DNA from: Brachycybe producta
Taxonomy: Eukaryota; Arthropoda; Diplopoda; Playtdesmida; Andrognathidae
Length of the DNA stretch: 64,000 bases
Reading direction: 5' to 3'
Assembly (NCBI GenBank): GCA_036925085.1
Contig: JAUPFP010000020.1
Location: 4,049,495-4,113,494, forward strand
Numbering within the stretch: position 1 is the stretch's first letter; every line of letters begins with the position of its first letter. Shown one piece after another: positions 7,359-61,814 of this stretch. The notes beneath the pieces were generated by a model. It was given only the letters and a program-made list of their open reading frames with translations, was not told where the DNA came from and searched no databases. Position numbers and translations under genes: made by a program.

Positions 7359-10300
7359 CTAGAGGTGGAGTCCCTCCCAGCAGGCAGTAATCCAACAATC
7401 CACGTGGCCCTGGAGGTCCGAGAAGAAGGCCTGGTAGATCTCTCTGTCGGGTCTGGTGGCACGGGATGGTGGTCGATCGAACAGTGTTGAGATCACGGCA
7501 TCATATAGGATGGCAGCCTGATGGTCGGAGGTAGTGCCTCGTAGGTAGCTTCGGGAGATCCGGAGGGCCCCTTCCGTAGGAGTCCCGAAAATTGTAATGA
7601 AAAACGACTTCATTACGGCTTGGAGGGCGGTGGTCATGATGTCTCCGGCGAACTGGAACACCTCGATGTGCTGGCGTCGTGGCATCACTATAGCGGAAAA
7701 AACGGCAGTGTCCCGGGTCATGCCGACGACGTACCGTTCCTTCCCCGGGAGTTCCAGATGGGGGAAACCTTCCTCCAAGTCGTAATGGCCGATATAAAGC
7801 GTCTGGGTTGGTTTAGTCTGCTGCTGCCACAGTGCCCATCGATTATTCAGGAGCCTCTCTCGTAGAGACTCCGGGCGGAGTGGACGGCAGATCGGTTTTT
7901 TTCTCCTGGCGGTCACCGCGGGAGGAGCGAGTGCAGTCGTGGTCGGGGCGGCAAGTGGATCATCAGAAGAGGTTGTAGGTGCGGTCCCCGTGTCTGCAAC
8001 GGGAAGGTCTTCATTGGGGGATGGAGGCGCGGTCCCCGCACTTCTGAAAGCTTCAGCGTGGCGGGCCCGGAAGAGTGTTGCCCGGGCCATGTCTCGTGCG
8101 CGCTGACGAGGCTTCTTCTTCTGGTTCTTTTCTGAAAGGGGAGGTCTGTCCTCGAGGCGAGGAATCCCCAGCGTCTCACGAGGATCCCACCCTCGCCTAA
8201 CGAAGTCTAGAACAAGGTCTGTCATTTTCTTCTGCTGAGAGAGAAAATACTCTCTCTCAGCGGTAGCAGGTGATGGCAATGGTGTTGCGACGGTGACAGG
8301 AGAAGTCTTCGTAGGTGGAGATGGTGGTGCTGGTTTGGAAATTGGTACCTCCATCAGAGGTCGGATGGTCGAATGATTTCCTCGAGACCCAGCCTTGAAA
8401 TGTTGGCGGAGGTCTTGGGGATGGCGGCGAAATTCCCGGTGGCTCTGGTGGGGGTGGTCTGAGTGTCGTTGGGAAGAGCGGCGTCGCCTCGGAGGTTGGT
8501 CCCTTGCTGACTGAAGGTAGTCCCTAGGGGGTCGTCTTGTAGGAGGCGGCTCGCTTCTCGATGAAGTTGGATCGGTGGTTGGTGGTGAGGTCGACGGAGG
8601 CGGTGTAGGTGGGAGAGGACGGTCAGATGCGGCTACCGCAGCTGGCTGCTCTTCCGAAGCAAGGAGAGCTTCGATCTTTGTGATCTCCTCCTGGGGGAGT
8701 GGGGCCGTGTAGGGCAGCCCCAACTCCGCCAGTCGGAGACACGCCAGCTGCAAGTAACGGAGATCCTTCCTGCCTTGGTCGTGGTCCTTCTCTTGTAAGC
8801 GGTGAATGCGCTCCTCCTCCAGTCGTTGTCGTTCTTTGTCGGCGGCTGTAGGTGGCGCAGTCCCGGAAGATTTCTTCCCCCAGGGCTCAGCTCCTCCTGG
8901 AATCATCTGGCCAGGGGCCAGACTCTTCCAGAAGTCCTTGGGGGGTCCCAGGGGCATCGTGGCAATGTCTATTCGGTCCTCGCGATCTTCGGCCCAATGC
9001 CTCGAGGTGGCGGCAGTGAGAGGAACCAGAAGCGTGGGGACTTCGGGTTTCCCCTCGCGGCCCACATTGGCCGGACGTCGTAGTGATGATTTCAAACGCT
9101 TTTCTCCACGTCGGTGAAAGTTCTCCGGCATAGAGTGGCGTCGACGCTTGTTGGGATCAGTTCCTGTTGATGGTGGTCTACTGGCAGGCTCGCTAGCGGT
9201 CCCCGCCTGAGTCTGCACAGTCGTAAGAGCGGTCTTAGTGGTCTTTGTGGGTGGTGGGGCGGTCCCCGCCTGTCCACCACCCACTTCCATAGGTATGTCG
9301 TTACTAGGAGGCGAGATGGTGGTATTTGATTCACCCCCTTCTTCATCGCTGGAGGGGCCATGATGATGGCGTCCCCTCCACGTGCCTTTAGTATTTTTCG
9401 GCATCTCTATTGTTGGGATTAAAAAAGTTTCATTAGAGGGGGGATAACCACCACCTCTTTCGGAACTTACGGTTTCTGGTGTTTTCGTCGGTGTTAATTT
9501 ATTCTCTCCTTCTGGAGTCCTTTGATGGTGGTCTTCCAATTCTTTGCAACACGTAGACTTTTTGTGTTTTGTGAAGACTTTTAGCGTTGGAATTTTCCCA
9601 TCAAATGAAGAATCGGTCACCGATTCAACTTGACCAAAAATGGAGTTTATGCAAAGTATTCCAAGAGATAAGGGTTGGGTCAGCCCCTTTGGTGGGGTCA
9701 TTGTGAAATTAGATTGATGATTGGGCCCCTCGATGATATAAGGGGTGTCTTGATTGGCCCAATTAATTTTTTTGATTTGATTGACAGGGGGCTTTGTTTT
9801 GATGTCTTTTATGGCCCCGATTTTGTGGTTTAATTCCCATCGGTGATGACGTAGTTTCATTTCTTGCATTAGGGTGTGAAGAGTTAGATGTTTGACTTTC
9901 CCACCAAAGATCTGAACTTGAAACTTTAAGTGGGTCAGTGAGTTCACTTTTTCTTCTTGTTGTGACGTCATGAGAGGGGGATTACGATGTTTTAGATAGT
10001 TTTCTTTTGTGGCCACGTGATTTTTATGTTTGAAAGCGTGGGTAGCGGTTACCGCTACTATTTTGTTGATGTTTATGATTGAGGACGTTGATCTTGATGA
10101 TTCCATGTGCTGGACACGTGGTTTTTCGTCTTCAATCACGTGGATGGTCTTGAGAGTGAGTATTTTTGGTGGAATTCCATCGTTGATTTCACTTTTTATT
10201 TCCGCTTTGTTTTTAGCGGCAGATTCCAACGATGAATTTGTTGTTTTTATTTTGAGTCTTTTCTTTTTGTGGTGGAGTTTTGCATTTTTAGATGGAATGG

Positions 10301-13300
10301 AAGTTTTGGTGGGTGGTTCTTTTGCAAATGGAGTTCCAGAGGATTCGTTTCCAAAAAAATTTTGAGGTATGGTAGGTTGTAGGGGTTTGTTGGGTGGTCT
10401 GGGTCCTGTTGGTTGTAGGGGTGGGCTGGTGTCCACCTCTGTTTCTCCCCCCTCCTTCCCTAAGAAACTCGTCCTCGAGTTTTTGAGTTTTTCCGTTTTC
10501 TGCGTTTCTGAACCACCTTTTCGGAGCGGTTCCCGCACCGGAACATGGTCTTCCAATTTTTCAGGATCGGTCACCGACACTGATTGCTCTGGGATGGTAG
10601 CGGTGTCCGCTACAACCTCCCAGTCATAGTCATACTGTATGTGAGCCAATACTTCGCCTTTTTGGAGGGTGCCTGGCGTCCTGTTGGTGTTGAAGACCTT
10701 GATTCTGAAGGTGGCTTCGTTCTGGCCTTGCATAAGACCAGGGGCCACGAAAATTCCTCGGTCGGCCTTGAGTTTTTCATCCGGTACGATGACGAAGAAG
10801 TCACTTTCTTTCAAAATCTTTGAGGCTTCAACCTCCACTAGGGCGATTCCTCCTCCATTAAGTCGGGTGTGGCTCAACACTACTAGGTGTTGCTCGATCC
10901 GCTGTGTACACTTAAGTTCCAATAGATTGCTGTCGTTGTCAGACGGTGGTTGTTCCTGAAGGGCACTTCCCACATAGGCTTCCACACATTGGCGACGGAG
11001 AACGGAGTTGAAGAGGTCATCCTCACAATAGACCTTGTCTGTGGTCATGGAGACACTGAGGTGAAGGGCTTTTCCTAGGTCACGACCTAAGATGGCTTCT
11101 CGGTGTCCTTTGATGACATACAGCGGTCCTTGGGCACGTATTGCACCCACTTCCACTGTAGCATTGACTTGGCCCACTATGTTGATGGTGGCACCTCCTA
11201 CTCCTTCAATCATTGGAGCTCTTGGCATGGGTTCGATTCTGAGGTCATGTTCGTTCGCGATGCATTCGGAGAGGACACTGCTATGGGCTCCTGTATCTAC
11301 CAGCATCCGGATTTCTCGGCCATTGATGGAGACCAATATCCGGGGGCTGTTGAGACTAGCGTCGTGGGCCCCAAGTTCTTTCACATCACAGCTGGCTGCT
11401 AGTTTCTGATACAGATCCTGCATCATGGTTCGGCAACAGGCTCGCCCCTTTTTGGGAGCTTTGCCTCCAGGTGTGATGATCATAACTGTCCTGTCTTCTC
11501 GGCAACCGAAATTGGAATTGGCGGAGTCGAAAGCTTCCATTATCTCATTCCAGAGGCCCAGGTCTATGGTAGTCCAGGGTTCCAGCTTGGGATGAGCGGA
11601 TGGGCTGATGACTGCGATGGGTAAGTAGTCTTCGGAATCGTCGATGATGTCTTCTACAACAGGAGTTGGTGGCGGAGCTTCGAGGGCGATTTTACGAAGT
11701 TGTCCTCCCAAACTGATGAGGGCATATTCGATACCATCCTCGCTGATAATATCAGTCTCAGCCAGGTCCTCCCCTGGGTGTTCAACGATTCCTCCATACT
11801 GTTTCACTTCCAAATTCCTTTTTGGTTGCTTGCATTCGCGGGAGAAGTGTCCTAGTTGTCCACATTGATAACAGGTGGCCTTGCTCTTGTCGATGGTCGT
11901 TACCGGCGCATCGCGGCGAGGGCCAGGGGCCGAGCTTATTGGAGCTTGTGGACCCCCTGATTTAGGTTGTGGGGCAGTGTAGGATCTTCTCGCATTCGGT
12001 TGTCTAGGTCGGTTGTCTCGAGGAGCTGGTGCGGTCACCGCACGTTGCTCCCCATCGGGTTTAGTTGACTTACTCTCTGGAAGGCCATCTACTGCTTCCG
12101 GAGCTAGGGGCCACTTATCCTTGGAGTAGAGGATCGCTTCCATTCTTAGTACAGCTTCTTTGAAGGAGCTGAATGAATGTGTTGGGGCGGAGTCCACTGC
12201 GTCTTGGATCGTCGGATGGAGCGAGCGTCGGAGCTGGTTGATTCGGAGTTCGTCGGACAGTTCAGGGTAAATTTTGTCCCCTAATTCGGCGAATTTCCAA
12301 ATGAAGGCCTGAGTGCTCTCTCCTTCCTTTTGGCGTAGTTCCCAGTAGCGTTTTTCCAGTAGAGTTCGTTCGTTTGGTTTGCCGAAAGCGGAGGTCATCC
12401 TCTTCCTGAGTTCAGACCAGGTCAAGTCAGGGTGGCGATAGCGAAGCTTGCTGAGCCACGAGCGAGCTGATCCGGTGAAGCAGGTAGTTACGAAGTCCTC
12501 CTTGTGGTGGTCATCCCATCGATGCAGATTGGCAACTTCTTCGAACTCTTCCAAGAAGGCACGGAAGGAGCCTAACCCATCGAACTTTTTAACGGAGTCG
12601 GCAGGGTGGCGGCTTCCATACTTTTTATTGAGCTCCTCCACAGTAAGTACTCTGGGTGGTGCCCTATAGACACCATCCAGGACCTGGCCTCGCCCTATGG
12701 CATTGGGGTTTGGCCCTTGGTCCCTGTGGCGGCGCTCTCGAGGAGGAAATTGCAGAGCATAAATGGAGTTTCGGTCATAGTCGTCGAGAGGCGGACTCGG
12801 GCGGTCACCGCCGTTGTCCGACCCGCTTGAGGTGTAGTCATAATATCTAGGCTCGATTGGTCGGGGACGCGGTCGATCCGCTTCCCGGTGTCGAGCCTCA
12901 GGGTAGGGTTGGTGAGCTGTCGATGTCCTCGGAGGTCCCGGAGTCATTGGATAGGTCCTCCTTGCAGGCAGTGGTTCGTAGGAACTTGTGCTTGGTCGGT
13001 GGTGGTCTATTTGTGGCTCTGGGTTCGAGTATCGTTGAGGTTCGGTCTCTCGAGGTGTAGATGGGTGTCTACTCCGTGATGATCCTGGCTTAGAGCGACT
13101 GGTAGACAGCTGAGTGGTCAGCTGGGTTCCCAGGGCGGACAAAAGCCTGATGATTTCAGAGAGATCCATGTTTTCTGGCTGCGAGAGGTTTGGTTGGGGT
13201 GACTTTGGTGTTTTGGTCTTCTTCCGCTTTGGGCGATGATCACCCTGGCTGCCGTTGGACACGTCCGATGTATCACTTCCTGAGAGGATGCGATGGCCTT

Positions 13301-14957: not shown

Positions 14958-14975
14958 TACCCCGCACCTCCACCA
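14958..14975 (-). promoter_or_regulatory. Primer-binding site of element A, tRNA-Ala-like
   Basis: On the minus strand, two bases after the 5' LTR, the sequence is TGGTGGAGGTGCGGGGTA. It is complementary to a tRNA ending CACCTCCA-CCA, the acceptor end known for several metazoan tRNA-Ala genes. Element B has TGGTGGAGGCGCCGGGTA in the same place. Confidence 0.8.
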
Positions 14976-14977
14976 AA

Positions 14978-15537
14978 TGTAACAATGTCGAGCTTTTGTT
15001 ACGGGGCTCAGTTGTAGAATCTCTTAACTCGAGCGGGTACCGCTTGTTGTTAAGAGATCGTTTGTGTTATACAACCTGAGTCCTACTGGTGCTGGGGTCG
15101 TTCTCGTAGATATTTCTTGATTTCGTCACTGTAGCTGAAAAGAATCATTAGACAGGCGAGACGGATGATAGGTTCGTCGATACTTATTTATTCATGACCA
15201 ACCATTAACACATGAACAACAGAGAAAGAGTTACTGTGGCGTGCTTTCGCCACTGGACCATTGATGAATTATTTCATGTTTCGATATCAAAGAATGGACC
15301 AAGAAACTATCGAAACACGGTCTTTTATACCCAGGGCCTGTGTACACCTTTTCAGGGGTACACATGCCCCGGGGACCGTGCATCGACGGGTATCCATCCG
15401 CCGATACCGGAACCTGAATGAGTCTTGGAGCTTTGGGGTCTCCAAGAGGAGAAGGAAGGGGCGGAAATCCGTCCCCTACGTCCCCAGAGACCCCCAGGCT
15501 AGGGGAGGGACAAAACGGCGAAATACAGGGTGTCACA
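14978..15537 (-). repeat. 5' LTR of element A
   Basis: 560 bp, with no difference that I could see from the copy at 6055-6614. Predicted signals sit at the same offsets (TATAAAAG at 15322-15329, AATAAA at 15187-15192). The GTGC target duplication follows at 15538. Confidence 0.9.
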
Positions 15538-16564
15538 GTGCTGAATCTTTTTTATTTATTAATATTGAATGCAGTTATGTAATAATTTTTTTTACTATAG
15601 TTTAATGAAAATTATAAATTTTTATTAATAATTTTGAATAGTAAAACTGCGGAAATTTATCCTCAGTCATTAATTGTGCATATTTATAAACAATCCCTTT
15701 ACCCACTTTAATAACAATATAGTTAAGAATTTATGCATAATGTTAATTCCAATATCCAGCAATGTACAAAACAGACAGAAAATAGAGACTAGAAATAATT
15801 AAAAAAAATCAGAATGAAAATTCAGTTATATTTCTGCATTCCTTTGCATTCAAAGGTTTTCACAGACGACTCACACAAAAACGACATAAATGGCGCTTCT
15901 GATAAATGCTTTCCTATTAGCTAATAAAAAAAAATGTAATTTGAACTAATTTCCCTGTTGTAGAATAGAAGAAAAACAGTTGAAATAATTTCAGTTTATT
16001 TTTCTGTCAAATATATTTGACAGAAATTATTAAAAATTAAATAAATTCTATTTTCAGTCAGATTTTTCTTTTCTTCCTCTGAATTTTTTGAGACCCCTTG
16101 GTCTATGCTCTCGCTTGCAGAAAAGGGCCAACTAAAAATTGCGACAGAAAACTGAATTAGTCATGTTTAAATAATTATGTTCTATTTATTTGTCAGAAAG
16201 TAAACAGAAAAAAAGCCTGAAATATTTTCAGTATTTTCTGTTTTTTTTTTTTTCAGGGCGGGATGCCCCATTCAAAATGAGAAAATGAAAATATTTGCAT
16301 CATTATTACTATAAAAAACACATCGATTATGTTCATAGAGAAAACTATATTATTTTTAGATTTAAAAAAAAATGACAAACTAGTGCAAAGATAACAAAGA
16401 AAATTTTAAACTAAGTTTAATTAATATATGAAGATTTAAAGTTGGCCGTTCTGGGCCCTTTTATTGGCGAAATCTTTAATTGCCTATGATAGTGAATGGG
16501 CGGGGGAGCCACGTGCATTCTATTTTTTACCAGTTGTGATTTTCACCCCAATGGAAACAAGGCC
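15538..16564. other. AT-rich intergenic DNA
   Basis: No gene. Blocks rich in CAGAAA and TTTTCTGT, and the phrase AAAAAAAATCAGAAT, recur near 30545-30785, 42590-42790 and 63840-63900. This suggests an old AT-rich repeat family whose ends I could not fix. Confidence 0.4.
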
Positions 16565-16875
16565 TAATGCCTTGTACACACATGAGTTAAATGAATTCAA
16601 ATCAAGTGTGTTTAGGTGAATTATACGGAATTCAGTTCAGGACATGAACCCAAATAAAAATTGACTTTATTATTAATATTTTAAATTGACATACTAAATC
16701 AATATTTTGTCAAATAGTTGATCTGATTATATTTAAGTATTAACTCAATATTTTCAGATTATTAACTGAATTAAATTGAATTCGACATATTGTTTGTTTG
16801 CTCTTCACAGAGGGCTCTGTAGAACACATTTATTATTTAAATGCATTTAAATTATCAGGTGTGTATTAGGTATTA
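16565..16875. mobile_element. MITE, family C, copy 2
   Basis: Starts TAATGCCTTGTACACAC and ends GTGTGTATTAGGTATTA, with the conserved core of the family. Same orientation as the copy at 5742-6050. Confidence 0.85.
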
Positions 16876-16929
16876 GACTCACAAATGAAGTTTCAAAATG
16901 GCCATTTCATGCACAGCCTGATGGGAATG

Positions 16930-17135
16930 ACAGGCAGTTAGAAATAAGAGAGAACTTCAGTTGGCTCCGCCCTTGTTATGACGACCAGCAACTTCTAATT
17001 GGTTTGTTGTGTGGTTCGACGTTGAAAAGGGTGGAGCATGTGACGTCAGACTACATAACCAACCAATTAGACGTTGCCGGTCGTCATAACAAGGGCGGAG
17101 CCAACTGAAGTTCTCTCTGATTTCTATCTGCCTGT
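16930..17135. mobile_element. Palindromic MITE, family D, copy 2
   Basis: 206 bp with mirrored ends ACAGGCAG and CTGCCTGT. It is flanked by an exact 9-bp target duplication, ATGGGAATG, at 16921-16929 and 17136-17144. This copy helps fix the family ends and duplication length. Confidence 0.92.
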
Positions 17136-17574
17136 ATGGGAATGTTGCAATACCTCCTTATAAATATCTTCATTTATAAATATAAATTGTTTTTTTTTTT
17201 TGCTAAAATGAATGACGTCATTTTAAAGTTTTTCACTCTCTAAGCTGTCAAGTGTTGTGTCAATTTCAATTTAGGTAATTTTTTGTTCTTATGGTTGTTG
17301 CATTTTTAGCAATTATTTTGAGGTCTTTTGAAACTAATCCATTAAATCACTTGTCATTCTCTTGGTTGCAATTTGCAAAAAGACATGCATGGAATCTTCC
17401 ATTGTTCAGCACTTGTGTTTCATCCTTGTTTATGCTTTTCATTTAAAATTGAAACCTGTAACAAAAAAAAATTAAACAAAAAATTCTCAATTATAAATAT
17501 CCTGCAATTATACAAAAAATAATTATTTATTGATTCTAATAGAACATTTTAATTGCTAATTATCTTATATGATG

Positions 17575-17877
17575 TAATACCTAGTACACACCTGATAATT
17601 TAAGTCCATTTAAATAATAAACGTGTTCTACAGAGCCCTGTGAAGGACAATACAAACAGTATGTCGAATTCAATTTATTCAGTTAATAATCTCAAAATAT
17701 TAAGTTAATACTTAAATATATAAACTATTGACAAAAAATAATGAATTAGTATTTCAATTTAAAATATTAATAATAAAGTCAATTTTTATTTGGTTCATGT
17801 CCTTAACTGGATTCCGTATAATTCACCTAAACACACTTGATTTGAATTCATTTAACTCATGTGTGTACAAGGCATTA
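17575..17877. mobile_element. MITE, family C, copy 3 (inverted)
   Basis: Starts TAATACCTAGTACACACCTG and ends GTGTGTACAAGGCATTA, so it lies opposite to copies 1 and 2. Same internal core (CAGAGCCCTGTGAAGG). Confidence 0.85.
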
Positions 17878-17989
17878 GGCAGCCTCTTTGTATGGAGCCA
17901 TATTTGCTTTTCCGTTTACTTTTTTTTTGGGGGGGGATTTTTTAGACAGTTAATTTTTTAAGGTTAGTTTTAAATGTTATTTCATTTAG

Positions 17990-18806
17990 CTTTTATCGAT
18001 TTCAGTTTGTATTCAGTTTAGCTTTTATTTAGTTTGGCGTTATTTATTTCAGCTTCAGTTTAATTTAGCTTTTATTGAGTTTAGCTTTCATTCAGGTTAG
18101 CTTTTACTTAGTTTAGTAAAACTTTTAATTCAGTTTAACTTTCGTTTTTGTGTTTATGAAATTTTAATTCTTGAATGAGTTGTAATTTATTGTGAAGTTC
18201 AGTTTTTTATTCAGTTCTATTTTAACTTTTATTCAGTTCTATTTTAGCTCTAAATCAGTTCTATTTTAGCTCTAAATCTGTTGTATTTTAGCTCTAATTC
18301 AGTTCTATTTTAGCTCTTATTCAGCTTTATTTTACTGTAGCTCTTATTTGGTTCTATTTTAGCTCTAATTTAGTTGTATTTTAGCTCTAATTTAGTTCTA
18401 TTTTAGCTCTAATTTAGTTCTATTTTAGCTCTAATTCAGTTCTATTTTAGCTCTAATTCAGTTCTATTTTAGCTCTAATTCACTTCTATTTTAGCTCAAA
18501 TTCACTTCTATTTTAGCTCAAATTCACTTCTATTTTAGCTCAAATTCACTTCTATTTTAGCTCAAATTCACTTCTATTTTAGCTCAAATTCACTTCTATT
18601 TTAGCTCAAATTCACTTCTATTTTAGCTCAAATTCACTTCTATTTTAGCTCAAATTCACTTCTATTTTAGCTCAAATTCACTTCTATTTTAGCTCAAATT
18701 CACTTCTATTTGAGCTCTAATTTTAGTTCTATTTGAGCTCTAATTTTAGTTCTATTTGAGCTCTAATTCAGTTCTATTTTAGGTCTTAATCAGTTCTGTT
18801 TTAGCT
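17990..18806. repeat. 22-bp minisatellite (TTCTATTTTAGCTCTAATTCA-like unit)
   Basis: Tandem array whose left part is degenerate (TTTAGCTTTTATTCAG) and whose right part is regular. One run of about ten units reads CTATTTTAGCTCAAATTCACT almost without change, so that part amplified recently. The solo LTR at 18807 interrupts it at an AGCT. Confidence 0.85.
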
Positions 18807-19719
18807 TGTGACGTGGCTGGCCCACCTCTTGTACCTTTGGCTCCATTACCGACGATGCGTGAGGAACTTCGTCCTCATTGGTGACGTTGTTCCCTCTGCT
18901 GAATCGATGGTGCCGGGGTCGACTCTGTTGTCGACTGCTGCGGACCAGCCTCTACTGTTATTGAACCTCCGGGGGTTGGGTTCACCGGGCGCGACATTTA
19001 CTTGCCTCGCCTGGCACGGCCCACAAAAAGACCGTCTTTCCTAGGGATCTTTGGATATAGGGCGTGACGATGCCGAAGTAACTCTAATCTTTTTCGTCGA
19101 GTTGCTGGAGGCTCCAGGCAGAGGGACTCAGGCTGTGTCTGAGTACCTTCTGCTGGATACTCCTCTATTTTAGGAGTACAGAAACCCAATATAGTCTGAA
19201 CTACACATACACTGACACTGGTTTGTGTATTTTCAATATAACTCTTTACTTGCTCTTGATTACATAATTATTATCACTTTTACATAATATATTGTTCTCT
19301 AAGTCAGATTTTTACTCTCTGAACCCTAGACTCTGGTTCAGGGGTACTTCTTGAAATTCTCAAGACCAACTCTCTAGTTTGAACTCTCTACTCTGCCTTA
19401 CTCAGTGTCTAAACTCTGACTGTCCTCACACTCAAGTCTCAGGCTCACTTGTCCGGTCTCCTGGGAGTGGCAACTGTCACCTCGGGGCGTAATGATTGAC
19501 CAACTGGGCCAATCATTGCCCTGGGCCGGGGGTTATTAAATCATAATCAGAAATATTCTTGGAACTTATTTCCAATTTTCTCACGGTCGGACTTGGTTCC
19601 ACGAATTCTCTAGAATTCGGGCCACCCATGTCCGAACATCTGTGCACCAAGGGGTGCCTTACTGTCAAAACTGAATTTTGACTTAAGTGTTTCACCTTCT
19701 GTTTCTACAGGGTGTCACA
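18807..19719 (-). mobile_element. Solo LTR of family B
   Basis: About 913 bp, similar to the LTR of element B over its full length but diverged. It is bounded by AGCT at 18803-18806 and 19720-19723, a 4-bp target duplication, which shows a complete insertion followed by LTR-LTR recombination. The in-LTR Gag start (ATG at 18997, minus) is kept, with about 40 codons in frame until a CGA codon has become TGA. Confidence 0.9.
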
Positions 19720-26750: not shown

Positions 26751-27101
26751 AAATTGAAATGAAAGGAGTAAAAAAAGGAAAAAACGACGCGCATGCGCAC
26801 AATTGCCTGTGAATTTTGCTCCCGTCATTTATGACAGGTTACCCCACTAGTATGTATATACTAATTGTAATAACAATTGTTTTCGGGGGGGGGGGGGAAT
26901 GCCCCCCTTGCACCCCCCAAATGACGTCCCTGCCTTTTCTGTGCATCAGCACCATCTACTGATTGCAAATGGAAACAAACGTCCTTCTATCGTATTTATC
27001 ATGTCGTTATTTTGGCTCCAAGGATGGAGTGTGGATGTGGCGTGTTTTGATCAGAGCTTGTTCATTCTGGCGAGTAAAGGGTTCTTGCTAGGGCTGTGGA
27101 G

Positions 27102-47634: not shown

Positions 47635-50100
47635 TTAAAAGCGATATCCATTTCCTTGTTGCATACGGTGTCCCGGTCGAATCAAATCCGCATCCGAGGA
47701 ACTATAGCGATAAAATCGTTTTTCGTCATCGTTTGTGCAATAGGGTTGTCTTTGAGGTTGACCTTGAGTTTCATTTCTTGGTACGAGGCGATTGGAAACT
47801 CTGTTTGTTGTAGTTGGGCAGTGAGGAGCGACCAAATCACCAGTGACATTGTCGCTACGACGATGGCCGTGATTACCGTTGTAAACGGGTGGTGGTGGTG
47901 GTGGTGACGGCGACAGATTGTATCGCTCTCTGTGGTCTGCATGCTGAGAAGCTTTTCTGGACTCGGTTGGTTCATTCCTTCGTCCAGATTTTTTAGATTC
48001 CATTTGATGTGGTGTCGTGGACACTGTTGGAAGGTAGTGATGTTGAATCCTGGCAGTGTCACGATCAAGACCCGGATAACGTTTCTCGTCTGGAAGTTCT
48101 TGATAATTTGGTCCTTTGTTGATAGAAGACTGAGGTTTACGATGTGGCGAATGGTAACGAGTACCACTGGAACCGACCCCGTTGTTATTGTTGTTGTTGG
48201 ACATTGATGAAGAGTGACCAGAATCTAGACGCCGTACTCTTGGAAGTGGAGCATGGTAGCCATCATGATATGGCACATCTCCTCCATATTCTGCTACTGG
48301 AAGTTTGGATGTGGCAGAATATGGAGTTGACGAAGAGGATGCCAAATGACGTTCACGGTTTGGTACTGCCGAATGGACATCATGGTATCGACTAACACCA
48401 CGTTGTTCATCTGCATTGAGACCTAATCGATCGTAACTATGTCTGTGGTTTGCATTTTTCGGTGGTTGTTGTTGTTGGTTATACGGCAAAGGTTTACTTC
48501 GCTCAGCATGTAACATTTGTTCGTTACGTCTATCCGTTGAGCGAGATATCGGAATATGGTCCTCTCGACTTCGAGATCTTTGTAACAATGGCTTATCGTG
48601 GATTCGATTGTCGTAATCGGAATCATCGTTGCGATTGTTAATATCATATTCTTCCAAATGCCTTGGAGAAATCCTTCTGTCGTTGTCACTGTACTTGCGT
48701 TGTTTGTCAATAAAAGCATTGCCACTTTTCGTGACATATCCATGATGTGGTACTGCATTGTGTCGCACTGCACTCCCACCACTCTCGGTATAATGCGGCA
48801 CTCGATGATCGATGTCTTCCATGCGGTCATGGTGACGTTCTCGTGACAACGGAGGTATCGATGGTGGTGGCAGCGGCATAGACGGATTCGACGGTGACAA
48901 AGAACGGATTGGATGTTCTCGAATCTTTGCTTTCGCACCACCTACAAGTGCCGTGGCACGACGGAACCGTTGAGGAGACTGCACTAGTATCATGTCTCTT
49001 TCTTCGATTGCCTGTGGATCATTGTTAGCTCTCCACTCTTCGTCTGAGCTTGATTCTTCTTCTTCGGCATTTTTCTTAGACCTTGGAGAATTATTCATCG
49101 GATTCGAATATCTGTGTTCTATGTTTGGCTCTCCTCTGTCTTTACCAACTCCTCGTTCATGCGTTGGAGAACTGGGAGCTTCGTCAGAACCGATACCACT
49201 CGATTTTCCACTAGAATCTGGACTTTTGGCTGTAGTGACTGCCTCTTTAGACTTCAGACGTCCTTTGACATTTGTACCAACAATGCCTTTTTGAAGGCAA
49301 CGTCTATCGTCAATGCCGTCCAGTTTCCCCTTCATGCGATGCACGGTATCGTAATCTCGAGGTGGTAACAATATAGGCCCATGGTTCTTATTGTTGTTGA
49401 GTTTTTCTCGCAGTTCTGCTGCAAGTGAATCGTAAAGATTATTCATTTTTTCATCAAGTACGTAGATCTCTTTGTCGGATGTTGAACCACCACCACTAGA
49501 ATCGGATTCGGTCCTTACGCTTCGGCCGTCCGAAGTGGCAATAACTTTTTTAGGAGGAAGTAATCCTTTGGCTTGCAACCGAACTTCAAGTTCCGAAAAT
49601 TTGCGTTGATTTTCAGGATGTTCTACCAGAGCCTGTAACTGTTGACGAAGAACGGTAGCCGTTTCTACCGAATCACAACGATACGCATGCACGTGAACGG
49701 GACATTTGGATACTGGATTATAAATCAACAAAATGCATGCAACAATGTCATCGTTTGGTTCTGGTTCTTGCGTGACGCAAGTAATGGAATGGTCTGGAAT
49801 GAAATGCTTCACCATGTCTGCCTTATTCTTGCTGCTGCTGCTGCTGCTACCACCGCTACCTCCGCTACCATTACCACTTCCGCAGCCATTTATATTTTGA
49901 ATTATCTTTAGTCCTTTACTGCTGACTTGTAGCGTTACTTTAAGCGGTTCTACTTCACACTCTCGATCGACTAGATTCTGAACAGCCGGCCGAATGTATT
50001 CATCGCCGCGAAGTCCGCGACTTTCCTTTGCACCGAGGAACCACACATAATACGAAGACTTTTTGATGATGTCTTTGGATTTTAATCCTCGAAGCGCCAT
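47635..50100 (-). CDS. PTB/PID-like domain protein with long disordered tail
   Basis: Uninterrupted 821-codon frame, the only convincing host gene here. The first 170 or so residues look like a phosphotyrosine-binding/PID fold: SSYYVWFLGAKESRGLRG near 16 as first strand and helix, then EVEPLKVTLQVSSKGLKIIQ, HFIPDHSITCVTQ, DDIVACILLIYNP and PVHVHAYRCDS leading into a helix TATVLRQQLQALVE. A Gly/Ser run at about 71-91 sits in a loop of the domain. The remaining 600 or so residues are polar and disordered (His, Arg, Ser, Pro; acidic EEEESSSDEEW, poly-Pro stretches) and hold many Tyr and Ser that could bind partners. PTB proteins are cytoplasmic adaptors, so that is the likely role. I do not recognise the exact orthologue. 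The ATG at 50100 directly precedes the domain. Extra upstream or downstream exons cannot be ruled out. Confidence 0.85.
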   Translation of the reverse strand: MALRGLKSKDIIKKSSYYVWFLGAKESRGLRGDEYIRPAVQNLVDRECEVEPLKVTLQVSSKGLKIIQNINGCGSGNGSGGSGGSSSSSSKNKADMVKHFIPDHSITCVTQEPEPNDDIVACILLIYNPVSKCPVHVHAYRCDSVETATVLRQQLQALVEHPENQRKFSELEVRLQAKGLLPPKKVIATSDGRSVRTESDSSGGGSTSDKEIYVLDEKMNNLYDSLAAELREKLNNNKNHGPILLPPRDYDTVHRMKGKLDGIDDRRCLQKGIVGTNVKGRLKSKEAVTTAKSPDSSGKSSGIGSDEAPSSPTHERGVGKDRGEPNIEHRYSNPMNNSPRSKKNAEEEESSSDEEWRANNDPQAIEERDMILVQSPQRFRRATALVGGAKAKIREHPIRSLSPSNPSMPLPPPSIPPLSRERHHDRMEDIDHRVPHYTESGGSAVRHNAVPHHGYVTKSGNAFIDKQRKYSDNDRRISPRHLEEYDINNRNDDSDYDNRIHDKPLLQRSRSREDHIPISRSTDRRNEQMLHAERSKPLPYNQQQQPPKNANHRHSYDRLGLNADEQRGVSRYHDVHSAVPNRERHLASSSSTPYSATSKLPVAEYGGDVPYHDGYHAPLPRVRRLDSGHSSSMSNNNNNNGVGSSGTRYHSPHRKPQSSINKGPNYQELPDEKRYPGLDRDTARIQHHYLPTVSTTPHQMESKKSGRRNEPTESRKASQHADHRERYNLSPSPPPPPPVYNGNHGHRRSDNVTGDLVAPHCPTTTNRVSNRLVPRNETQGQPQRQPYCTNDDEKRFYRYSSSDADLIRPGHRMQQGNGYRF

Positions 50101-55512: not shown

Positions 55513-56754
55513 AATATATTACATTAATTTTTTTTTTAAATCGATCATTATTGCATCTTATTATGGTACCATAAGACGATGGTACTCAAAAAATGGATGA
55601 AACTGTCATTATGTATGTGTTTTGTGTATTTTAAGCAAACTTTTGACCTTAATCATTCATCATTTAACATACGAAGTGCGTGCACATAATTATAATTCTC
55701 TTGAATTTGCAGTTAGTTTTCAGTTTCATTTTGAAAATTACTTCTATAGGCCTCTCTAATCCTATAATTGCTTTCTAATAATATTTTGGATAATAAATTT
55801 AATGACTCTTGGATAAAAAAATACTGTATGGATGATAAATTTGGTAACTCTTGGATGATAAATATTTAGGATTATAAATTTAATAAATCTTAAGCTAGAT
55901 TAAAGAATTATTACAGTAAAATTACTGTGGTGAAATTCGGATGGCTCATTTGAACAATACACATGCGCAGTGGTGTTTCTACCTTAACTTACATTATTAT
56001 TTTTAAATGTTTAATTTCTGTTCACTTTAAGAATAAATTCCATAAAATATAACGGATAAATCAGCCTTATATATTATGAAATTCAAGGTAGCCACAATTA
56101 CTCAATTGTGTCCACATAAAAAAGCATTTAAAATGAAAGCTTTTGTTTTTTTAAAAAAATATTCTTCTTCTTATGTATTTTAACAATGGAAATTAAATAT
56201 TTCATCAACATTCTTATTGTTATTTCTTTTATATATAAATGATCTAATTCATTGCGTCGATTTTTCACGATTCCTCCTCCTCCTCCTCCCCATTGATATC
56301 AATTATTATTATGATCATATACTAACTTTAATTATTTTTATTATTATTAAGAATATTATTGTTATCCTATTGGAAATCTAGGTTACAATATAACGCCTTC
56401 TCTATATGGAAAGATAACCTTCGTTTAAAATTATTCTGCTTCAAAAAATGTTATATAGTTTCAGGGTAAACTTCAAATTTGTGATTTTTTTGTTGTTGTG
56501 TTTATGCATATTGTTGTTATTTACTGTGGGCGTTTGATTAATTTCGAACTAACTAGTCTGCAAACAAATTTACATAAATATGTCTACGGGTGATTTTTGT
56601 TTGTAAAATTTATCGATTTTAAAAATCACATGAAATTCAGCAAGAAATTCAACTAAAATGCTCAGGTGTAAATAAATTAAGTGCCCTGGTGTGATAATTT
56701 TCTAAATATTTTTAAATACATAAAGTTAAAAGAAAGAAATGTGAAGTTTCTCTT
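55513..56754. other. AT-rich intergenic DNA, no gene seen
   Basis: No frame of note; CTCCTCCTCCTCC near 56274-56287 and several ATT runs. Confidence 0.5.
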
Positions 56755-57041
56755 ATTTCTTGTACACACATAAGTTAAATGAATTCAAATTAAATGTGTT
56801 TAGGTGAATTTATACGGAATCCAGTTAAGGACATGAACCAAATAACAATTGACTTTAATTATTAATATTTTAAATTGAAATACTAAATCAATATTTTAAT
56901 GTCAATAGTTTCTATATTTTATATTTAAGTATTAACTGAATAAATTGAATTCCACATGTTGTTTGTTTGCCCTTCACAGGGCTCTGTAGAACACATTCAT
57001 TATTTAAATGCATTTAAATTATCAGGTGTGTACTGGGTATT
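56755..57041. mobile_element. MITE, family C, copy 6
   Basis: CTTGTACACACATAAGTTAAA start and GTGTGTACTGGGTATT end, with the family core in the plus orientation of copies 1 and 2. Confidence 0.8.
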
Positions 57042-57189
57042 GGAAACTAGAATGATTCAAGTATGTCCTGAAATTGTACTCAAATTAAGCATTTTTATGT
57101 AACATATTCATCATTCAAAGAAGCCAATTGATAATGTGACTGAAAACAGAAATAGTGTCTAATTCAATTAATTTGATTCAGAACGTAAA

Positions 57190-58073
57190 TGTGACACCCT
57201 GTAGAAACAGAAGGTGAAACACTTAAGTCAAAATTTCAGTTTTGACAGTAAGGCACCCCTTGGTGCACAGATGTTCAGACATGGGTGGCCCGAATTCCAG
57301 AGAATTCGCGGAACCAAGTCCGACCGTGAGAAAATTGGAAATAAGTTCCAAGAATATTTCTGATTATGATTTAATATCCCCGGCCCAGGGCAATGATTGG
57401 CCCAGTTGGTCAATCATTACGCCCTGAGGTGACAGTTGCCCCTCCCAGGAGACCGGACAAGTGAGCCTGAGACTTGTGTGTGAAGACAGTCAGAGTTTAG
57501 ACATCAAACTAGAGAGTTGGTCTTGAGAATTCAAGAAGTACCCTGAACCAGAGTCTAGAGTTCAGAGAGTAAAGATCTGACTTAGAGAATATTGTTATGT
57601 AAAAGCAATAATAATTATGTAATCAAGAGCAAGTAAAGAGTTCTATTCAAAATACCTAAACCAGTGTGATATTGTGTATTTTGGATTGTATTGAGTTCCT
57701 GTACTCCTAAAATAGAGGAGTATCCAGCAGAAGGTACTCAGACACAGCCTGAGTCCCTCTGCCTGGAGCCTCCAGCAACTCAACCAAAAAGGACTAGAGT
57801 TTCTTCGGCATCGTCACGCCTATACCAAAGATCCCTAGGAAAGACGGTCTTTTTGTGGGCCGTGCCAGGCAAGGCATAGTAAATGTCGCGCCCGGTGAAC
57901 CCAACCCCCAGAGGTTCAACAGCAATAGAGGCTGGTCCGCAGCAGTCGACAACAGAGTCGACCCCGGCACCACCGACTCAGCAGAGGGAACAACGTCGTC
58001 AACGAGGACGAAGTTCCTCCCGCATCGTCGGCACTGGAGCCAAAGGTACGAGAGGTGGGCCAGTCGTGTCACA
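57190..58073 (+). repeat. 5' LTR of element B
   Basis: TGTGACACCCTGTAG to CGTGTCACA. It contains the Gag start codon at 57883, so its last 191 bp are coding. I did not find a clear TATA box or AATAAA. Confidence 0.92.
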
Positions 58074-59466
58074 AAATGGTGGAGGCGCCGGGTATAGTGC
58101 CAATAACGACACCGAAGACGAAGATGAAGCTACTGGAGGAGCTTCAGCCACACCGAGATCTGCGAAGAGGACGCCGAGAGTAACGTCCGAAGAGGTCCTG
58201 AAGTTAACTGCCCAGATGAAGAAGCAAGTCGCCACAGAGTACCTGGCCAGTCTACGGACCAAGAAGCAGAAGGAATCCATGCTCAACGTGTTTGGATTCA
58301 CCAGTAAAGCGGACACAACCCAAATGAGTGAGTTTGCATCCGTTTATGATATTCAAAGCGAATTTCAAGAGGCGCGCCCAAGAGCAAGGGACACGCCAAA
58401 CCCAGAGTCAAGCATGAACATTCAAGCCATCACGTTAGATGACAACGCTGACGCGCCATCATGCCAAGAGTTAGTGAAAAGATACCATGGTCGCCATCCG
58501 CTCGAAACGCTCCAACGTTTCGATGGCATCATGTCAGTGCACGAGTTTCTGCAACGTTTCGAGGACATTGCAGATATACAAGAGTGGAACGACGTACATA
58601 GACTGTACTTCGCCAAGACCGCGTTCATAGGCTATGCCCAGGAGTGGTTAGCTGGTTTCTCAAGAGAGCACAAGAAACCAACGTGGACAGAGCTGCGCCG
58701 AGCGTTAGTAGACGCGTTCGGAAAAGCAGATGACGCAGTTCGAATTCAAGGAGAATTCGAAAGGATGAGACAACGAAAGGGTGAGAATTCAGCAGTTTAT
58801 ATGCGAAATTACTTGCGCATGTCATACCTGTTATGCCCTAACATCCCAGAGCCAGTTAGAGTGTCGAATTTGCGCAAAACATTGCACCCAATTATTCGAC
58901 AGCACACCAAGACGTGTCCAATCGCGGACACAAAAGAGTTCGTCCAATTTATAAATCGAGTCGAATCAATTTTAATTATGGATGAAGAGTGGGAGATCGT
59001 GGAGCAAAGCGCGCTTCAACCCTTCCAACCCCAAAAGCAGTCTGGTCAGCAGAACCAGAGTAACAAGAGTAGAAAGAACCAAGCGAAAGGAGCTTACGAC
59101 GACAGAGTATACGCCGTCGTTGCGCAGAGCAATGCTCCGAATTCTGGCCAACAGCAGTTGCAATCTCAGCAGAAGAAGCAACAGGGCCAGAGATCTCAGA
59201 GAAATAGACAGAGATCACCGAGAAATAGAGGGCAGAAGCCTAAAGTGCCTCTAGAGGAGGTAATTTGCTACAACTGCAGCCAAAAAGGTCATTTTGGTAG
59301 AAATTGCCCACAGCCCGATAGACGACAGGCATCTACAGTCGGCAATATAACGAGTCAAGAGTCAGCTGTTTCCACAGGGTCTGATGGTAAACAGTACATA
59401 GCCGTTTTAGTCAACGGACAGACGACCTATTTCCCCGTCGAAGCCCAACAGCAACATTTAAACTAA
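57883..59466 (+). CDS. Gag-like protein of element B
   Basis: 527 residues. The first 64 codons lie in the 5' LTR and the next few cross the primer-binding site, an unusual arrangement. A Gln/Ser/Arg-rich N terminus leads to a capsid-type domain at about 190-360 that aligns with element A: RHP-x(6)-FDG, FL-x-RFE, PTWTELR, AFGKADD, LRKTLHP. A basic Gln-rich stretch precedes one CCHC knuckle, CYNCSQKGHFGRNC, near 463. The tail ends HLN-stop. The last codons TTA-AAC form a TTTAAAC slippery heptamer just before TAA. No protease follows in this frame. Internal methionines (for example near residue 111) could also be starts, but the frame is open and free of indels in the solo LTR too, which favours the LTR start. 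Confidence 0.85.
   Translation: MSRPVNPTPRGSTAIEAGPQQSTTESTPAPPTQQREQRRQRGRSSSRIVGTGAKGTRGGPVVSQNGGGAGYSANNDTEDEDEATGGASATPRSAKRTPRVTSEEVLKLTAQMKKQVATEYLASLRTKKQKESMLNVFGFTSKADTTQMSEFASVYDIQSEFQEARPRARDTPNPESSMNIQAITLDDNADAPSCQELVKRYHGRHPLETLQRFDGIMSVHEFLQRFEDIADIQEWNDVHRLYFAKTAFIGYAQEWLAGFSREHKKPTWTELRRALVDAFGKADDAVRIQGEFERMRQRKGENSAVYMRNYLRMSYLLCPNIPEPVRVSNLRKTLHPIIRQHTKTCPIADTKEFVQFINRVESILIMDEEWEIVEQSALQPFQPQKQSGQQNQSNKSRKNQAKGAYDDRVYAVVAQSNAPNSGQQQLQSQQKKQQGQRSQRNRQRSPRNRGQKPKVPLEEVICYNCSQKGHFGRNCPQPDRRQASTVGNITSQESAVSTGSDGKQYIAVLVNGQTTYFPVEAQQQHLN
58077..58094 (+). promoter_or_regulatory. Primer-binding site of element B, tRNA-Ala-like
   Basis: TGGTGGAGGCGCCGGGTA begins three bases after the LTR. 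It matches the complement of a tRNA-Ala 3' end (CACCTCCA-CCA) except for C at position 10. The same bases are translated as part of Gag. Confidence 0.8.
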
Positions 59467-59497
59467 TGAGGGCGGCGGTGAAAAGGGGCCCACCGCC
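59457..59497 (+). promoter_or_regulatory. Candidate -1 ribosomal frameshift site (TTTAAAC plus hairpin)
   Basis: TTTAAAC at 59457-59463 is in the X-XXY-YYZ phase (0-frame codons TTA AAC) with the stop TAA next. ORF2 lies in the -1 frame. A GC-rich stem pairs GGCGGTG (59474-59480) with CACCGCC (59491-59497) around a 10-nt loop. With a bulged C it extends to start six nt after the heptamer. TAATG at 59464-59468 also offers termination-reinitiation. Confidence 0.75.
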
Positions 59498-61814
59498 CTT
59501 CACGAAGAAAATACCTTCGAAGAAGAGTAAGGTCGATTCCCCGGTCGAAAAAGATGCTCAGAAGACAGCATCTAAGAGTAACGAAAAAGATGTTCAGAAG
59601 ACAGCATCTAAGAGCAGCAAGAACGATGTTCAGAAGTCAGCATCGAAGAGCTACAGCGGAGATGTCCAGAAAGAGACATCCACCCAAATCAAGCGAGATG
59701 TTCAGCAAGCAGCATCCATGAGTAACAAGAGAGATGTCCATCACGAAGTATCCACAAGCGTGAAGAAGAGACCGAAGACATCAAAGAGGGTTAGCGAGTA
59801 TCACAAATACTTACCTGAACTTTCAACAGTAGAGAACGACGACTCGTCATTCAATAGAGGTGTTGAAGACGATGATGACATCATAGGCTACATAAGTGAA
59901 CGAGAGATAGATGAAGTTTTAGAGGGTGTAGACGACGCCATAGAGAAACCTATCAAACCAACTTATGAGCAAAATTCTAACATGAGTCATCGAGGTATCA
60001 ATTCGCAAAGAAAACACAAACACGGAATTGAAACAAGAGAAATGTTTTTATTAAACAAGAGTTTTACAAAGCCCACCCACAAGGCAATAAAAACAACAAT
60101 GTATACAGAAGTTATACACGATGAGGCCAGAGGTCAAGCCGACTCTGATTCCCGAGAAAGAGTAGCCGTCACCACTGGTAGCAAAGGCAGACGAAAGCCC
60201 CAAGAAGAGACGGGCAGAAGAATCAGACGTCAATTGACACCTTCTGACAATCAGAACCAAGATTTAGGACGAAGTTCCATTAGACAGGTCGGAGTTCAGA
60301 TGACTGCCACCTTAGTAAAGATGGAGGAGAAACGATCCTTCGTCTCTGTGAAAGTAAATAAACAGAAAAATGGAAACAGGACCCCCGAAAATGGTCATCT
60401 GACCACAACAGGGAGAGAGACACATTTTCCCAATGAGAGGAGAAATTCAATAAATATCGTCACCTTGGTTCTCATTCTTTTAATCGTACTCACCATTATC
60501 GGAGTGAAAGTCTTGAAAGAATTAGGTCGAATTGTCAGGATCGGTTTAAGCAGCCTCCCGAAGAACATAACCGAGAAGAGTGGTAGTCTATCAGTCCATA
60601 GGCTACCACCAGAAGGGCAAGCGATGGAACGAAAGGCCGTTCCATCCCAGAAAGAGCCTTCTTGTCCACCAGGAACTAGAGAAAGGGGACAAGAAGAGGA
60701 GGAGGAGGAAGGAGGACAAAGAACGATGTTGGTGTCCTCGGCCAAGGAGCAGCAACCACAAGAGGGGGGTAGACACCATCCAAGTGACCCCGAATCCTGG
60801 CCACTACCTCCTCAGTCTCGAACGAGCCGCCCCGAACGACTGCCAGTCCCGGCCGACCGGAGCAGGACATCGGAGAGGGCTACCATCATCGTCCCCAACA
60901 TACGAAGGGACGACAGAGGGCAAAGAGAGCCGGGAGCCCCCCGAGACCAAGAGAGAGACATCGAGGCATCCAGCCAGCGGCGGGTGAGATTCAACCCAGC
61001 CGTGCAAATCCGCAAGATCGGACTGCCACTCCCGCTACCGGAGAGTCTCCGGGCGGAAGTTGGGGCTCGTCCGAGAACGAGAAGTGGTGAGCGGCTGGAA
61101 AGCGCAACCTATGCCATGCAGCGGAGAGCGGAGGAACCAGTGGTTGCAAGTAGCGGCCACCAAGAGAGAGCGAGAGAGATTCGTCCGCCAGTTCCTCCGA
61201 GGCCGGCAGAAGTCCCGGACTACCGATTTAGTCCCGCTGGAAGAGACGCAGAGGAGAGTAGACAGAGGAGCGTGAGAGAAGACCCAGGAGTTGAGATGGG
61301 TCCGGTCCTCCTGAATAACCTTATCGTGCGCTGGTACCGACACCAGGCACCCAGGTCAGTCCAGTACCTGGGGTGCTTCACGCCACGTCATGGGATGCCG
61401 CATGTCGCCCTATCGACTACATGCCGCCATTACCTCCTCACAGCGAAGACAAGAGGGGACGTCGCCCTCGTCATAATTAAGAGGACGACGCTAGAATGCC
61501 GAATCTACTACTATAGGGGAGGGTGGAATGTGCCAAGAGAAGGAAGGAACGTAAGATGCTTCCTGCATCAACTACTCCAACCTGGACCGACCCACGAGAT
61601 AGACATTAGCTACGGCGAGTTTCGGTTCACAGGTGGGCGCACCGAAAGAGTGGTGCTACTGTATGATGCAGTGGTCCATGCGATCATGGGCGACCTGCCC
61701 CAGTTAGAGGTCCTCGGAAGGGAATGTCTGATTGAGACGACACTCCGAATGATCATGAGGGCAGCAGAGGCGCCCCACCGTGGATGGGCTGATGTGCGCG
61801 ATCCCTACCCATAG
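59466..61814 (+). CDS. ORF2 of element B: repeat region, membrane segment and shared C-terminal domain
   Basis: 782 residues, not recognised as any pol product. Its ATG overlaps the Gag stop (TAATG), and it is reachable by -1 frameshift as well. In order: six 12-residue repeats of the form DVQKTASKSSKN at about 29-100; an acidic patch; a basic region; one strong hydrophobic segment, INIVTLVLILLIVLTIIGV, at about 330-349 that looks like a transmembrane helix; a Glu/Arg/Pro-rich disordered section; and a C-terminal domain at about 615-745 with LLNN, YLG, G-x-PH and LLYDAV that aligns almost without gaps to the end of the element A protein. No DTG, YxDD, HHCC or DDE motif. The membrane segment is absent from element A. 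Function unknown; packaging, membrane targeting or partner recognition are guesses. Confidence 0.8.
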   Translation: MRAAVKRGPPPFTKKIPSKKSKVDSPVEKDAQKTASKSNEKDVQKTASKSSKNDVQKSASKSYSGDVQKETSTQIKRDVQQAASMSNKRDVHHEVSTSVKKRPKTSKRVSEYHKYLPELSTVENDDSSFNRGVEDDDDIIGYISEREIDEVLEGVDDAIEKPIKPTYEQNSNMSHRGINSQRKHKHGIETREMFLLNKSFTKPTHKAIKTTMYTEVIHDEARGQADSDSRERVAVTTGSKGRRKPQEETGRRIRRQLTPSDNQNQDLGRSSIRQVGVQMTATLVKMEEKRSFVSVKVNKQKNGNRTPENGHLTTTGRETHFPNERRNSINIVTLVLILLIVLTIIGVKVLKELGRIVRIGLSSLPKNITEKSGSLSVHRLPPEGQAMERKAVPSQKEPSCPPGTRERGQEEEEEEGGQRTMLVSSAKEQQPQEGGRHHPSDPESWPLPPQSRTSRPERLPVPADRSRTSERATIIVPNIRRDDRGQREPGAPRDQERDIEASSQRRVRFNPAVQIRKIGLPLPLPESLRAEVGARPRTRSGERLESATYAMQRRAEEPVVASSGHQERAREIRPPVPPRPAEVPDYRFSPAGRDAEESRQRSVREDPGVEMGPVLLNNLIVRWYRHQAPRSVQYLGCFTPRHGMPHVALSTTCRHYLLTAKTRGDVALVIIKRTTLECRIYYYRGGWNVPREGRNVRCFLHQLLQPGPTHEIDISYGEFRFTGGRTERVVLLYDAVVHAIMGDLPQLEVLGRECLIETTLRMIMRAAEAPHRGWADVRDPYP

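What the first reader, a model, noticed from the sequence alone, without database searches (positions are those of the whole stretch)
7359..61814. Two sister LTR elements lack RT/IN but share an unknown C-terminal domain
Seen: the last 130 residues or so of the element A protein (1866-1995) and of element B ORF2 (615-745) align from LLNN to LYDAV, about 118 residues, with roughly one or two gaps. Shared positions include LLNN, a W five residues on, Y-x-G, G-x-PH, an R eight residues later and an (I/L)LYDAV block. Their Gag domains are homologous too. Known: Ty3/gypsy elements normally follow protease with RT, RNase H and integrase. Inference: this is a non-autonomous lineage, mobilised in trans, that kept Gag and an extra domain under selection across the A/B split. 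That would be a new element class or at least an undescribed accessory domain.
Basis: partly seen in the sequence, partly recalled or inferred. Interest (0 to 1): 0.88.

Follow-up and report, generated by a model that had tools for sequence, protein, structure and literature searches.

The report
Pol-less retrotransposons sharing a pseudo-protease domain
Two jumping elements that lack their own copying and pasting enzymes have, elsewhere in the same genome, partner elements that carry such enzymes; both keep a domain predicted to fold like a SUMO or ubiquitin protease but without a conserved active site, so the genes of one mobile element seem to be shared out between separate copies.

The parts
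6055..6614 (-). element A 3' LTR (560 bp)
   Evidence: identical to 14978-15537; TGTGACACCC..TTACA ends
14978..15537 (-). element A 5' LTR
   Evidence: 4-bp duplication GTGC at 6051-6054 and 15538-15541
14958..14977 (-). A primer binding site TTTGGTGGAGGTGCGGGGTA (looks like a tRNA-Ala complement; tRNA recalled)
   Evidence: 20 of 20 bases also in L070 at 602-621
7359..13448 (-). A single ORF, 2029 aa: Gag-PR-tail-CTD
12219..12494 (-). A Gag capsid-like domain (PF03732)
   Evidence: residues 319-410
11826..11876 (-). A zinc knuckle
   Evidence: residues 525-541
11079..11333 (-). A aspartic protease (LVDTGAHS)
   Evidence: residues 706-790
10490..10507 (-). scar where RT-RNaseH-IN is missing (residues 981-987): DNA resembles the partner's RT start up to here and its post-integrase tail from here
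   Evidence: L094 to A_orf 2942; L096 from A_orf 2959
7383..7868 (-). A CTD, predicted CE-clan-like fold (residues 1861-2022)
6615..6625 (-). A polypurine tract (GTTGGGGGGTA)
57190..58073 (+). element B 5' LTR (884 bp); its last part encodes the first residues of Gag
62891..63774 (+). element B 3' LTR, two mismatches to the 5' LTR
   Evidence: 4-bp duplication TAAA at 57186-57189 and 63775-63778
58077..58094 (+). B primer binding site TGGTGGAGGCGCCGGGTA, inside the gag reading frame
57883..59466 (+). B ORF1: Gag with zinc knuckle, 527 aa
59464..59468 (+). TAATG stop/start overlap of ORF1 and ORF2
59466..61814 (+). B ORF2, 782 aa: compositionally biased tail and CTD, no PR/RT/IN
61299..61793 (+). 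B CTD
62880..62890 (+). B polypurine tract (GAAGGGGGGTG)
18806..19719 (-). solo LTR of the B family (91%)

Best explanation
A and B are Pol-deleted partner elements of two Ty3/gypsy families. They are copied in trans by sister elements that share their Gag and, for A, their LTR. They are not empty passengers: they encode Gag (A also protease) and the CTD, a pseudo-protease of CE-clan (Ulp1/SENP/deubiquitinase) fold that sits after integrase in complete elements. Shown by sequence: the anatomy, the partners, the reciprocal loss in A's family (A lost RT-RH-IN; the partner copy read lost the CTD), the absence of conserved Cys/His in the CTD, the cassette-like difference of tail+CTD between otherwise near-identical copies, and low dN/dS of the CTD. 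Shown by prediction: the fold. Inferred: trans-mobilisation; that pol-less copies provide extra Gag and CTD that co-assemble with Pol from the partner, which would raise the Gag:Pol ratio in a family whose partner has Gag and Pol in one uninterrupted frame; that the CTD binds ubiquitin or a ubiquitin-like protein (or a host factor of that pathway) to protect, route or target the particle; and that it is swapped between lineages because the host side changes.
Against: Purifying selection on the CTD may have acted in pol-bearing donors before the cassettes were captured, so function of the pol-less copies themselves is not proven. dS above 1.5 is saturated, so the ratios are rough. Outside the CTD constraint is weak: A's middle part has dN/dS about 0.3, the block 1201-1341 0.58-0.81, and in B's ORF2 upstream of the cassette dN equals or exceeds dS in two of four blocks, on few changes. 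RT was read in 1 of 10 A partners and 1 of 3 B partners; the rest rests on frame length or spacing. The integrase core of A's partner was not read. A's partner lacks the CTD in the copy read and yet is present in ten near-identical copies, so the CTD is either supplied in trans or dispensable. No expression, particle or mobility data exist; ubiquitin or SUMO binding is a guess from the fold.
Confidence: 0.7

Rival explanations
1. A and B are ordinary deletion-derivative parasites (as TR-GAG or LARD elements). Their ORFs are open only because the insertions are young and the master copies are recent; the proteins do nothing for them.
For: LTRs of A are identical, those of B differ at two sites; A's Gag is 100% identical to that of partner copies over 332 aa, so pol loss may be recent; constraint outside Gag, PR and CTD is weak; the Athila study raises the same caveat about past selection.
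Against: Retention of Gag plus CTD without pol occurs in A's and B's families separately; at least three A-type CTD lineages sit in pol-less ORFs of 2029-2044 aa without a stop; RT-less Gag copies of the L070-LTR family keep a frame of 837-846 aa in 97 of 104 listed rows, though these rows were ranked by similarity, which favours intact copies.
Confidence: 0.35
2. The CTD is an active SUMO or ubiquitin protease that cleaves conjugates or the polyprotein.
For: Predicted fold; Ulp1-type domains occur in Ginger1 transposases and in some non-LTR retrotransposons.
Against: No conserved Cys or His column over 35 members, and none at the start of the helix after the last strand, where the nucleophile lies in this clan (position recalled; no residue-level superposition was made).
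Confidence: 0.05
3. The CTD region is a degenerate envelope protein, since it stands where env stands.
For: Separate ORF after pol in L070; hydrophobic segments precede it in L069 and B ORF2 (read by eye).
Against: The domain is predicted as a compact alpha/beta fold with CE-clan matches; I saw no hydrophobic segment of its own, but ran no predictor for one.
Confidence: 0.05
4. Two or more complementary element types with the same LTR are the obligate parts of one split retrotransposon (strongest form of the best explanation).
For: L070-LTR family: 0 of 107 RT rows has a tested Gag row within 9 kb upstream; 0 of 104 and 0 of 41 Gag rows has a listed RT within 9 kb downstream; of 19 LTR-bounded elements 6 hold RT and CTD without Gag, 12 Gag without RT, 1 none of the listed features, 0 both.
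Against: All lists are capped, and only listed rows were compared; a rare complete master, or a more diverged Gag or RT, is not excluded; A's family does have copies with Gag and RT.
Confidence: 0.35

Closest known systems
Athila elements of Arabidopsis (PMC2410132; abstract and passages read)
   Same: Many lack pol yet keep intact ORFs for Gag and Env under purifying selection; recombination among distant families builds new lineages; pol-less ones are held to be mobilised by other families.
   Different: Plant; third ORF is env-like. Here the third module has a predicted CE-clan protease fold, and in A's family partner and pol-less copy share LTR and Gag with reciprocal losses.
BARE1/BARE2 of barley (PMC3735527; passages read)
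   Same: BARE2 cannot make Gag and is packaged into BARE1 particles; L070-type copies have no Gag either.
   Different: Ty1/copia (recalled); BARE2 has an 8-bp deletion of the gag start codon, L070 lacks capsid and zinc-knuckle coding; BARE1 makes Gag and Pol, whereas no such copy was found with the L070 LTR in the capped lists.
TR-GAG elements of plants (search listing only; otherwise recalled)
   Same: LTR elements with Gag and no pol.
   Different: No extra conserved domain is recalled; A and B carry the CTD and A a protease.
Ginger1 transposases (PMC2836005; passages read)
   Same: A Gypsy-like integrase followed by a C-terminal Ulp1 (or OTU) domain: the same order of parts as here.
   Different: DNA transposons; their domain matches pfam02902, ours has no Pfam family and no conserved Cys/His.
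CE-clan proteases (OtDUB 6upu, SENP5 9gnx, NEDP1 2bkq, Ulp1 2hl9)
   Different: Sequence identity 5-13%; no conserved Cys/His; part of a retrotransposon protein.
HeT-A/TART of Drosophila (recalled; my search for it, listed no paper)
   Same: A Gag-only element using RT of a partner, with mutual benefit proposed.
   Different: Non-LTR telomeric elements.

Membership tests
Ty3/gypsy (Metaviridae) LTR elements | PR-RT-RNaseH-IN in this order | tested here: not met
   A and B have no RT/RH/IN. Met in relatives with the same domain: L069, L070.
Ty3/gypsy (Metaviridae) LTR elements | LTRs with TG..CA ends, short target duplication, PBS and PPT | tested here: met
   4-bp duplications in both
Ty3/gypsy (Metaviridae) LTR elements | Gag of Ty3/gypsy type with CCHC | tested here: met
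   PF03732 and PF00098 in both; PF19259 in B, below its curated cut-off
Ty3/gypsy (Metaviridae) LTR elements | PBS complementary to a host tRNA | tested here: inconclusive
   No tRNA gene in the window; the tRNA-Ala match is from memory
CE-clan (C48-like) proteases | fold | tested here: met
CE-clan (C48-like) proteases | His-Asp-Cys catalytic residues | tested here: not met
   No conserved Cys or His column over 35 members; no residue-level superposition was available
CE-clan (C48-like) proteases | match to a Pfam family such as Peptidase_C48 | tested here: not met
   35 members scanned: no family matched more than one member at E 1, best E 0.013 (4HBT_3); one member had a C39-like peptidase model at E 0.14
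CE-clan (C48-like) proteases | protease activity | not testable with these tools
   needs a bench assay
Pol-less Gag-coding partners (Athila/TR-GAG kind) | intact Gag, no pol, complete LTRs | tested here: met
Pol-less Gag-coding partners (Athila/TR-GAG kind) | pol-bearing relatives in the same genome | tested here: met
   RT/RNase H in L094 and L100
Pol-less Gag-coding partners (Athila/TR-GAG kind) | retained ORFs under purifying selection | tested here: inconclusive
   dN/dS 0.06-0.12 in A-type CTDs, but weak constraint elsewhere and selection before pol loss not excluded
LARD (large retrotransposon derivatives) | no coding capacity | tested here: not met
   ORFs of 2029, 527 and 782 aa

The most novel reading that the evidence does not exclude
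A multipartite retrotransposon: in the family with the L070 LTR no single copy may be complete. One kind carries PR-RT-RNaseH-IN plus the CTD and no Gag, another Gag-PR, another Gag plus CTD. The LTR-bounded copies tested have identical LTRs, and each kind has from tens to over a hundred listed copies, so that mobility would need at least two kinds together, as in a segmented or multipartite virus. The CTD, a dead CE-clan protease swapped as a cassette, would be the part that meets the host.
Probability: 0.35. Interest if true: 0.88.

Novelty: new variant of a known kind. Interest (0 to 1): 0.72.

Why it matters
It shows a genome (an animal's, by my reading of its gypsy elements and host-like gene; the record is unnamed) in which gag, pol and a third module of Ty3/gypsy elements have been redistributed among co-spreading copies and recombined, as described for plant Athila. 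That makes the question whether non-autonomous retrotransposons are parasites or partners testable with natural pairs of known sequence. It also adds an undescribed retroelement domain with the predicted fold of SUMO/ubiquitin proteases but no conserved active site, constrained and exchanged like a cassette, which points to the ubiquitin or SUMO system as a possible meeting point of these elements and their host.

Tried and rejected
Homologues outside the genome: three protein-database searches gave none, nor did viral contigs or phage records; these collections seem to hold few animal sequences, so this is not evidence that the domain is restricted. The first structure job with two sequences failed (pLDDT 33.5). 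PDB by sequence: nothing for the domain. HTH_psq, Pox_I6_C and other weak Pfam rows are taken as noise. I first thought that the third size class of L070-LTR elements might be the complete master; a piece of one copy showed Gag, another piece no ORF where RT would be expected, and the Gag rows have frames of 846 aa at most, so it is read as RT-less too. An RNase H/integrase-like reading of the CTD, considered by eye, was dropped; the VIA list is a second look at Foldseek's matches, so absence of other folds there proves nothing. Foldseek itself could not be run. Rfam and tRNA scans of the window were empty. Papers: searches listed none; others listed the papers cited or others that I did not open. 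Seen: PMC12440569 and PMC5408684 (abstract and section list only), PMC2410132 (abstract and passages), PMC3735527, PMC2836005, PMC4640811 (passages). Two of these searches asked for Ulp1 with LTR elements; none of the titles and abstracts listed describes a Ulp1-fold domain in an LTR element. That search was small.

Full report
What is in the window. Element A lies on the minus strand between two identical 560-bp LTRs (6055-6614, 14978-15537), with a 4-bp target duplication, a primer site and a polypurine tract. It has one ORF of 2029 aa: Gag, zinc knuckle, aspartic protease, about 900 residues largely of biased composition, and the C-terminal domain. Element B lies on the plus strand between 884-bp LTRs with two differences. 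Its Gag start codon lies in the 5' LTR and its primer site inside the gag frame. ORF2 starts at a TAATG overlap, has no protease, RT or integrase and ends with the same domain. The similarity of the two domains is real: score 80 against at most 55 in 5000 shuffles; the rest of the two proteins also scores 86, but that is what biased composition gives (whole-protein shuffles reach 84, same call). The Gags are homologous at E 1e-45.

The host genome holds the answer. The window is part of G000 (295 Mb, 442 contigs). With A's domain as query 151 matches are listed and more exist, with B's domain likewise. Two loci read over 9.9 kb show where the domain belongs. L069 has a Gag ORF (479 aa) and a 2566-aa ORF with PR, RT, RNase H, integrase, a long tail and the domain at its end. 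L070 has a 1573-aa PR-RT-RNaseH-IN ORF and, after it, a 412-aa ORF that ends with the domain. So the domain is a post-integrase module, in the place of env, of elements with pol. Two degraded relics also show integrase pieces followed by an A-type domain (L033, L036).

A and its partner. A's Gag finds 23 rows at 99-100% identity (of 121 listed). Ten have a 2287-aa frame. I read two pieces of one of them: L094 continues from A's post-protease stretch (A 903-987) into RT and RNase H, and L096 continues from the last residues of integrase into A's tail and then jumps from A residue 1810 to 2007, so the domain is missing (the domain profile's best match in its frames has E 0.42). Its protease and integrase core were not read. 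The 13 others have the domain 3.77-3.82 kb after Gag as in A; none of the ten has one among the 25 domain rows compared (the first 24 of 151 rows and one further), nor did I see one by eye in the whole list. Of the 13, A, L091 and L092 were read and have no RT. A's LTR, 97-100% identical, flanks both sorts (40 rows listed of 821 candidates). In A a scar at window 10490-10507 joins the start of RT to the post-integrase tail. The two kinds have thus lost reciprocal parts.

B and its partner. Of 30 Gag rows at 95% identity or more (of 150 listed), 22 have a domain 2.2-2.4 kb downstream as in B, 11 of the B type (95-100%) and 11 of another type (66-69%). Three have a 28-29% domain about 7.5 kb downstream, one at 4.7 kb, four none listed. 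A 0.7-kb piece of one 7.5-kb copy, whose Gag is 100% identical to B's over 186 aa, encodes the end of RT and RNase H (L100, 68% to L069). LTRs of B's partner were not compared.

The cassette. A, L091 and L092, all pol-less, are almost identical up to about residue 1200 (dS 0.00-0.04 per 150-codon block) and then differ with dS 0.3 to above 1.5; the domain has dN 0.15-0.18 and dN/dS 0.06-0.12, the tail before it 0.22-0.31 and the block 1201-1341 0.58-0.81. B and L058 show the same independently: four blocks of about 100 codons at dS 0.015-0.075, then 0.7-2.7 in tail and domain. In two of those four upstream blocks dN equals or exceeds dS, on few changes, so that stretch of ORF2 shows no constraint. 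The simplest cause of the pattern is recombination that exchanges tail plus domain between lineages that diverged long ago while selection kept the domain. dS above 1.5 is saturated, so ratios are rough, and part of that selection may have acted in pol-bearing donors.

A family without a complete copy so far. L070 and A share 20 of 20 bases of primer site and 82% of 40 bases before the 3' LTR, but L070 has no Gag: no Pfam hit, and A's and B's Gags find nothing in it. A 601-base part of its LTR (40 rows listed, all 100%; 2077 candidates) forms 19 pairs (2 rows unpaired): 6 enclose RT and domain, 10 a Gag with an 839-type frame, 2 a Gag with a 629-aa frame, 1 none of the listed features, 0 both Gag and RT. 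Genome-wide, 0 of 107 RT rows has a tested Gag row within 9 kb upstream; 0 of 104 Gag rows and 0 of 41 Gag rows taken has RT within 9 kb downstream. The 41 are the 54-56% rows with frames of 609-674 aa; the rows with longer frames and the A-like rows were left out, and all these lists are capped. 100 of 107 RT rows are followed by the domain within 6 kb. Pieces read: where RT would be expected in one 839-type copy there is no ORF (L098), one 839-type copy ends its ORF after protease (L095), and one 629-type copy has a domain near its end (L099). 97 of 104 Gag rows keep a frame of 837-846 aa and 71 of 107 RT rows one of 1570-1597 (one RT row has a frame of 5498 aa, not examined). In a second L070-type copy (L093) the upstream part is withheld.

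How it may work. Trans-mobilisation is implied by intact LTRs, near-identical copies and no RT. [quoted passage not shown] Copies that make Gag(-PR)-CTD alone could supply this. The CTD's ligand is unknown; ubiquitin or a ubiquitin-like protein is the natural guess from the fold. Marco and Marin discussed such cooperation in Athila from pol-less copies with selected Gag and Env and from recombination (abstract and passages). The present case has the same logic with a different third module.

Verdict. Observation confirmed; interpretation partly supported. New variant of a known kind, with an undescribed domain; the obligate-split reading is the bold one and can be decided by full annotation of the assembly.

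Noticed in passing
18209-19719: A 22-bp tandem array (18209-18806) abuts the solo LTR of the B family (18806-19719).
   Followed up: no
5742-6051, 16562-16876, 17575-17880, 21436-21746, 24392-24663, 56753-57041: An interspersed repeat of about 300 bp, six copies at about 85-93%; one copy ends next to A's 3' LTR and one lies about 150 bp before B's 5' LTR, so both elements may have landed in or near this repeat.
   Followed up: no
1026-1233, 16928-17138, 23533-23737, 27101-27305, 38234-38441, 39360-39567, 39681-39885: Seven related, roughly palindromic (MITE-like) elements of about 205 bp; long inverted arms were seen directly in two of them.
   Followed up: no
47635-50100 (-): Intact 821-aa ORF, probably a host gene (it reminds me of FAM43, recalled only); Pfam finds no domain.
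   Followed up: partly
20403-21132: 20-bp minisatellite with open frames running through it (a 289-aa ORF at 20264-21133).
   Followed up: no
57883-58094: B's Gag start codon lies in the LTR and the primer binding site is read as Gag codons, so 5' LTR, primer site and coding sequence overlap.
   Followed up: partly
G000:C11:3206450-3207607 (+): One L070-type RT copy sits in an open frame of 5498 aa, against 1570-1597 in most others.
   Followed up: no
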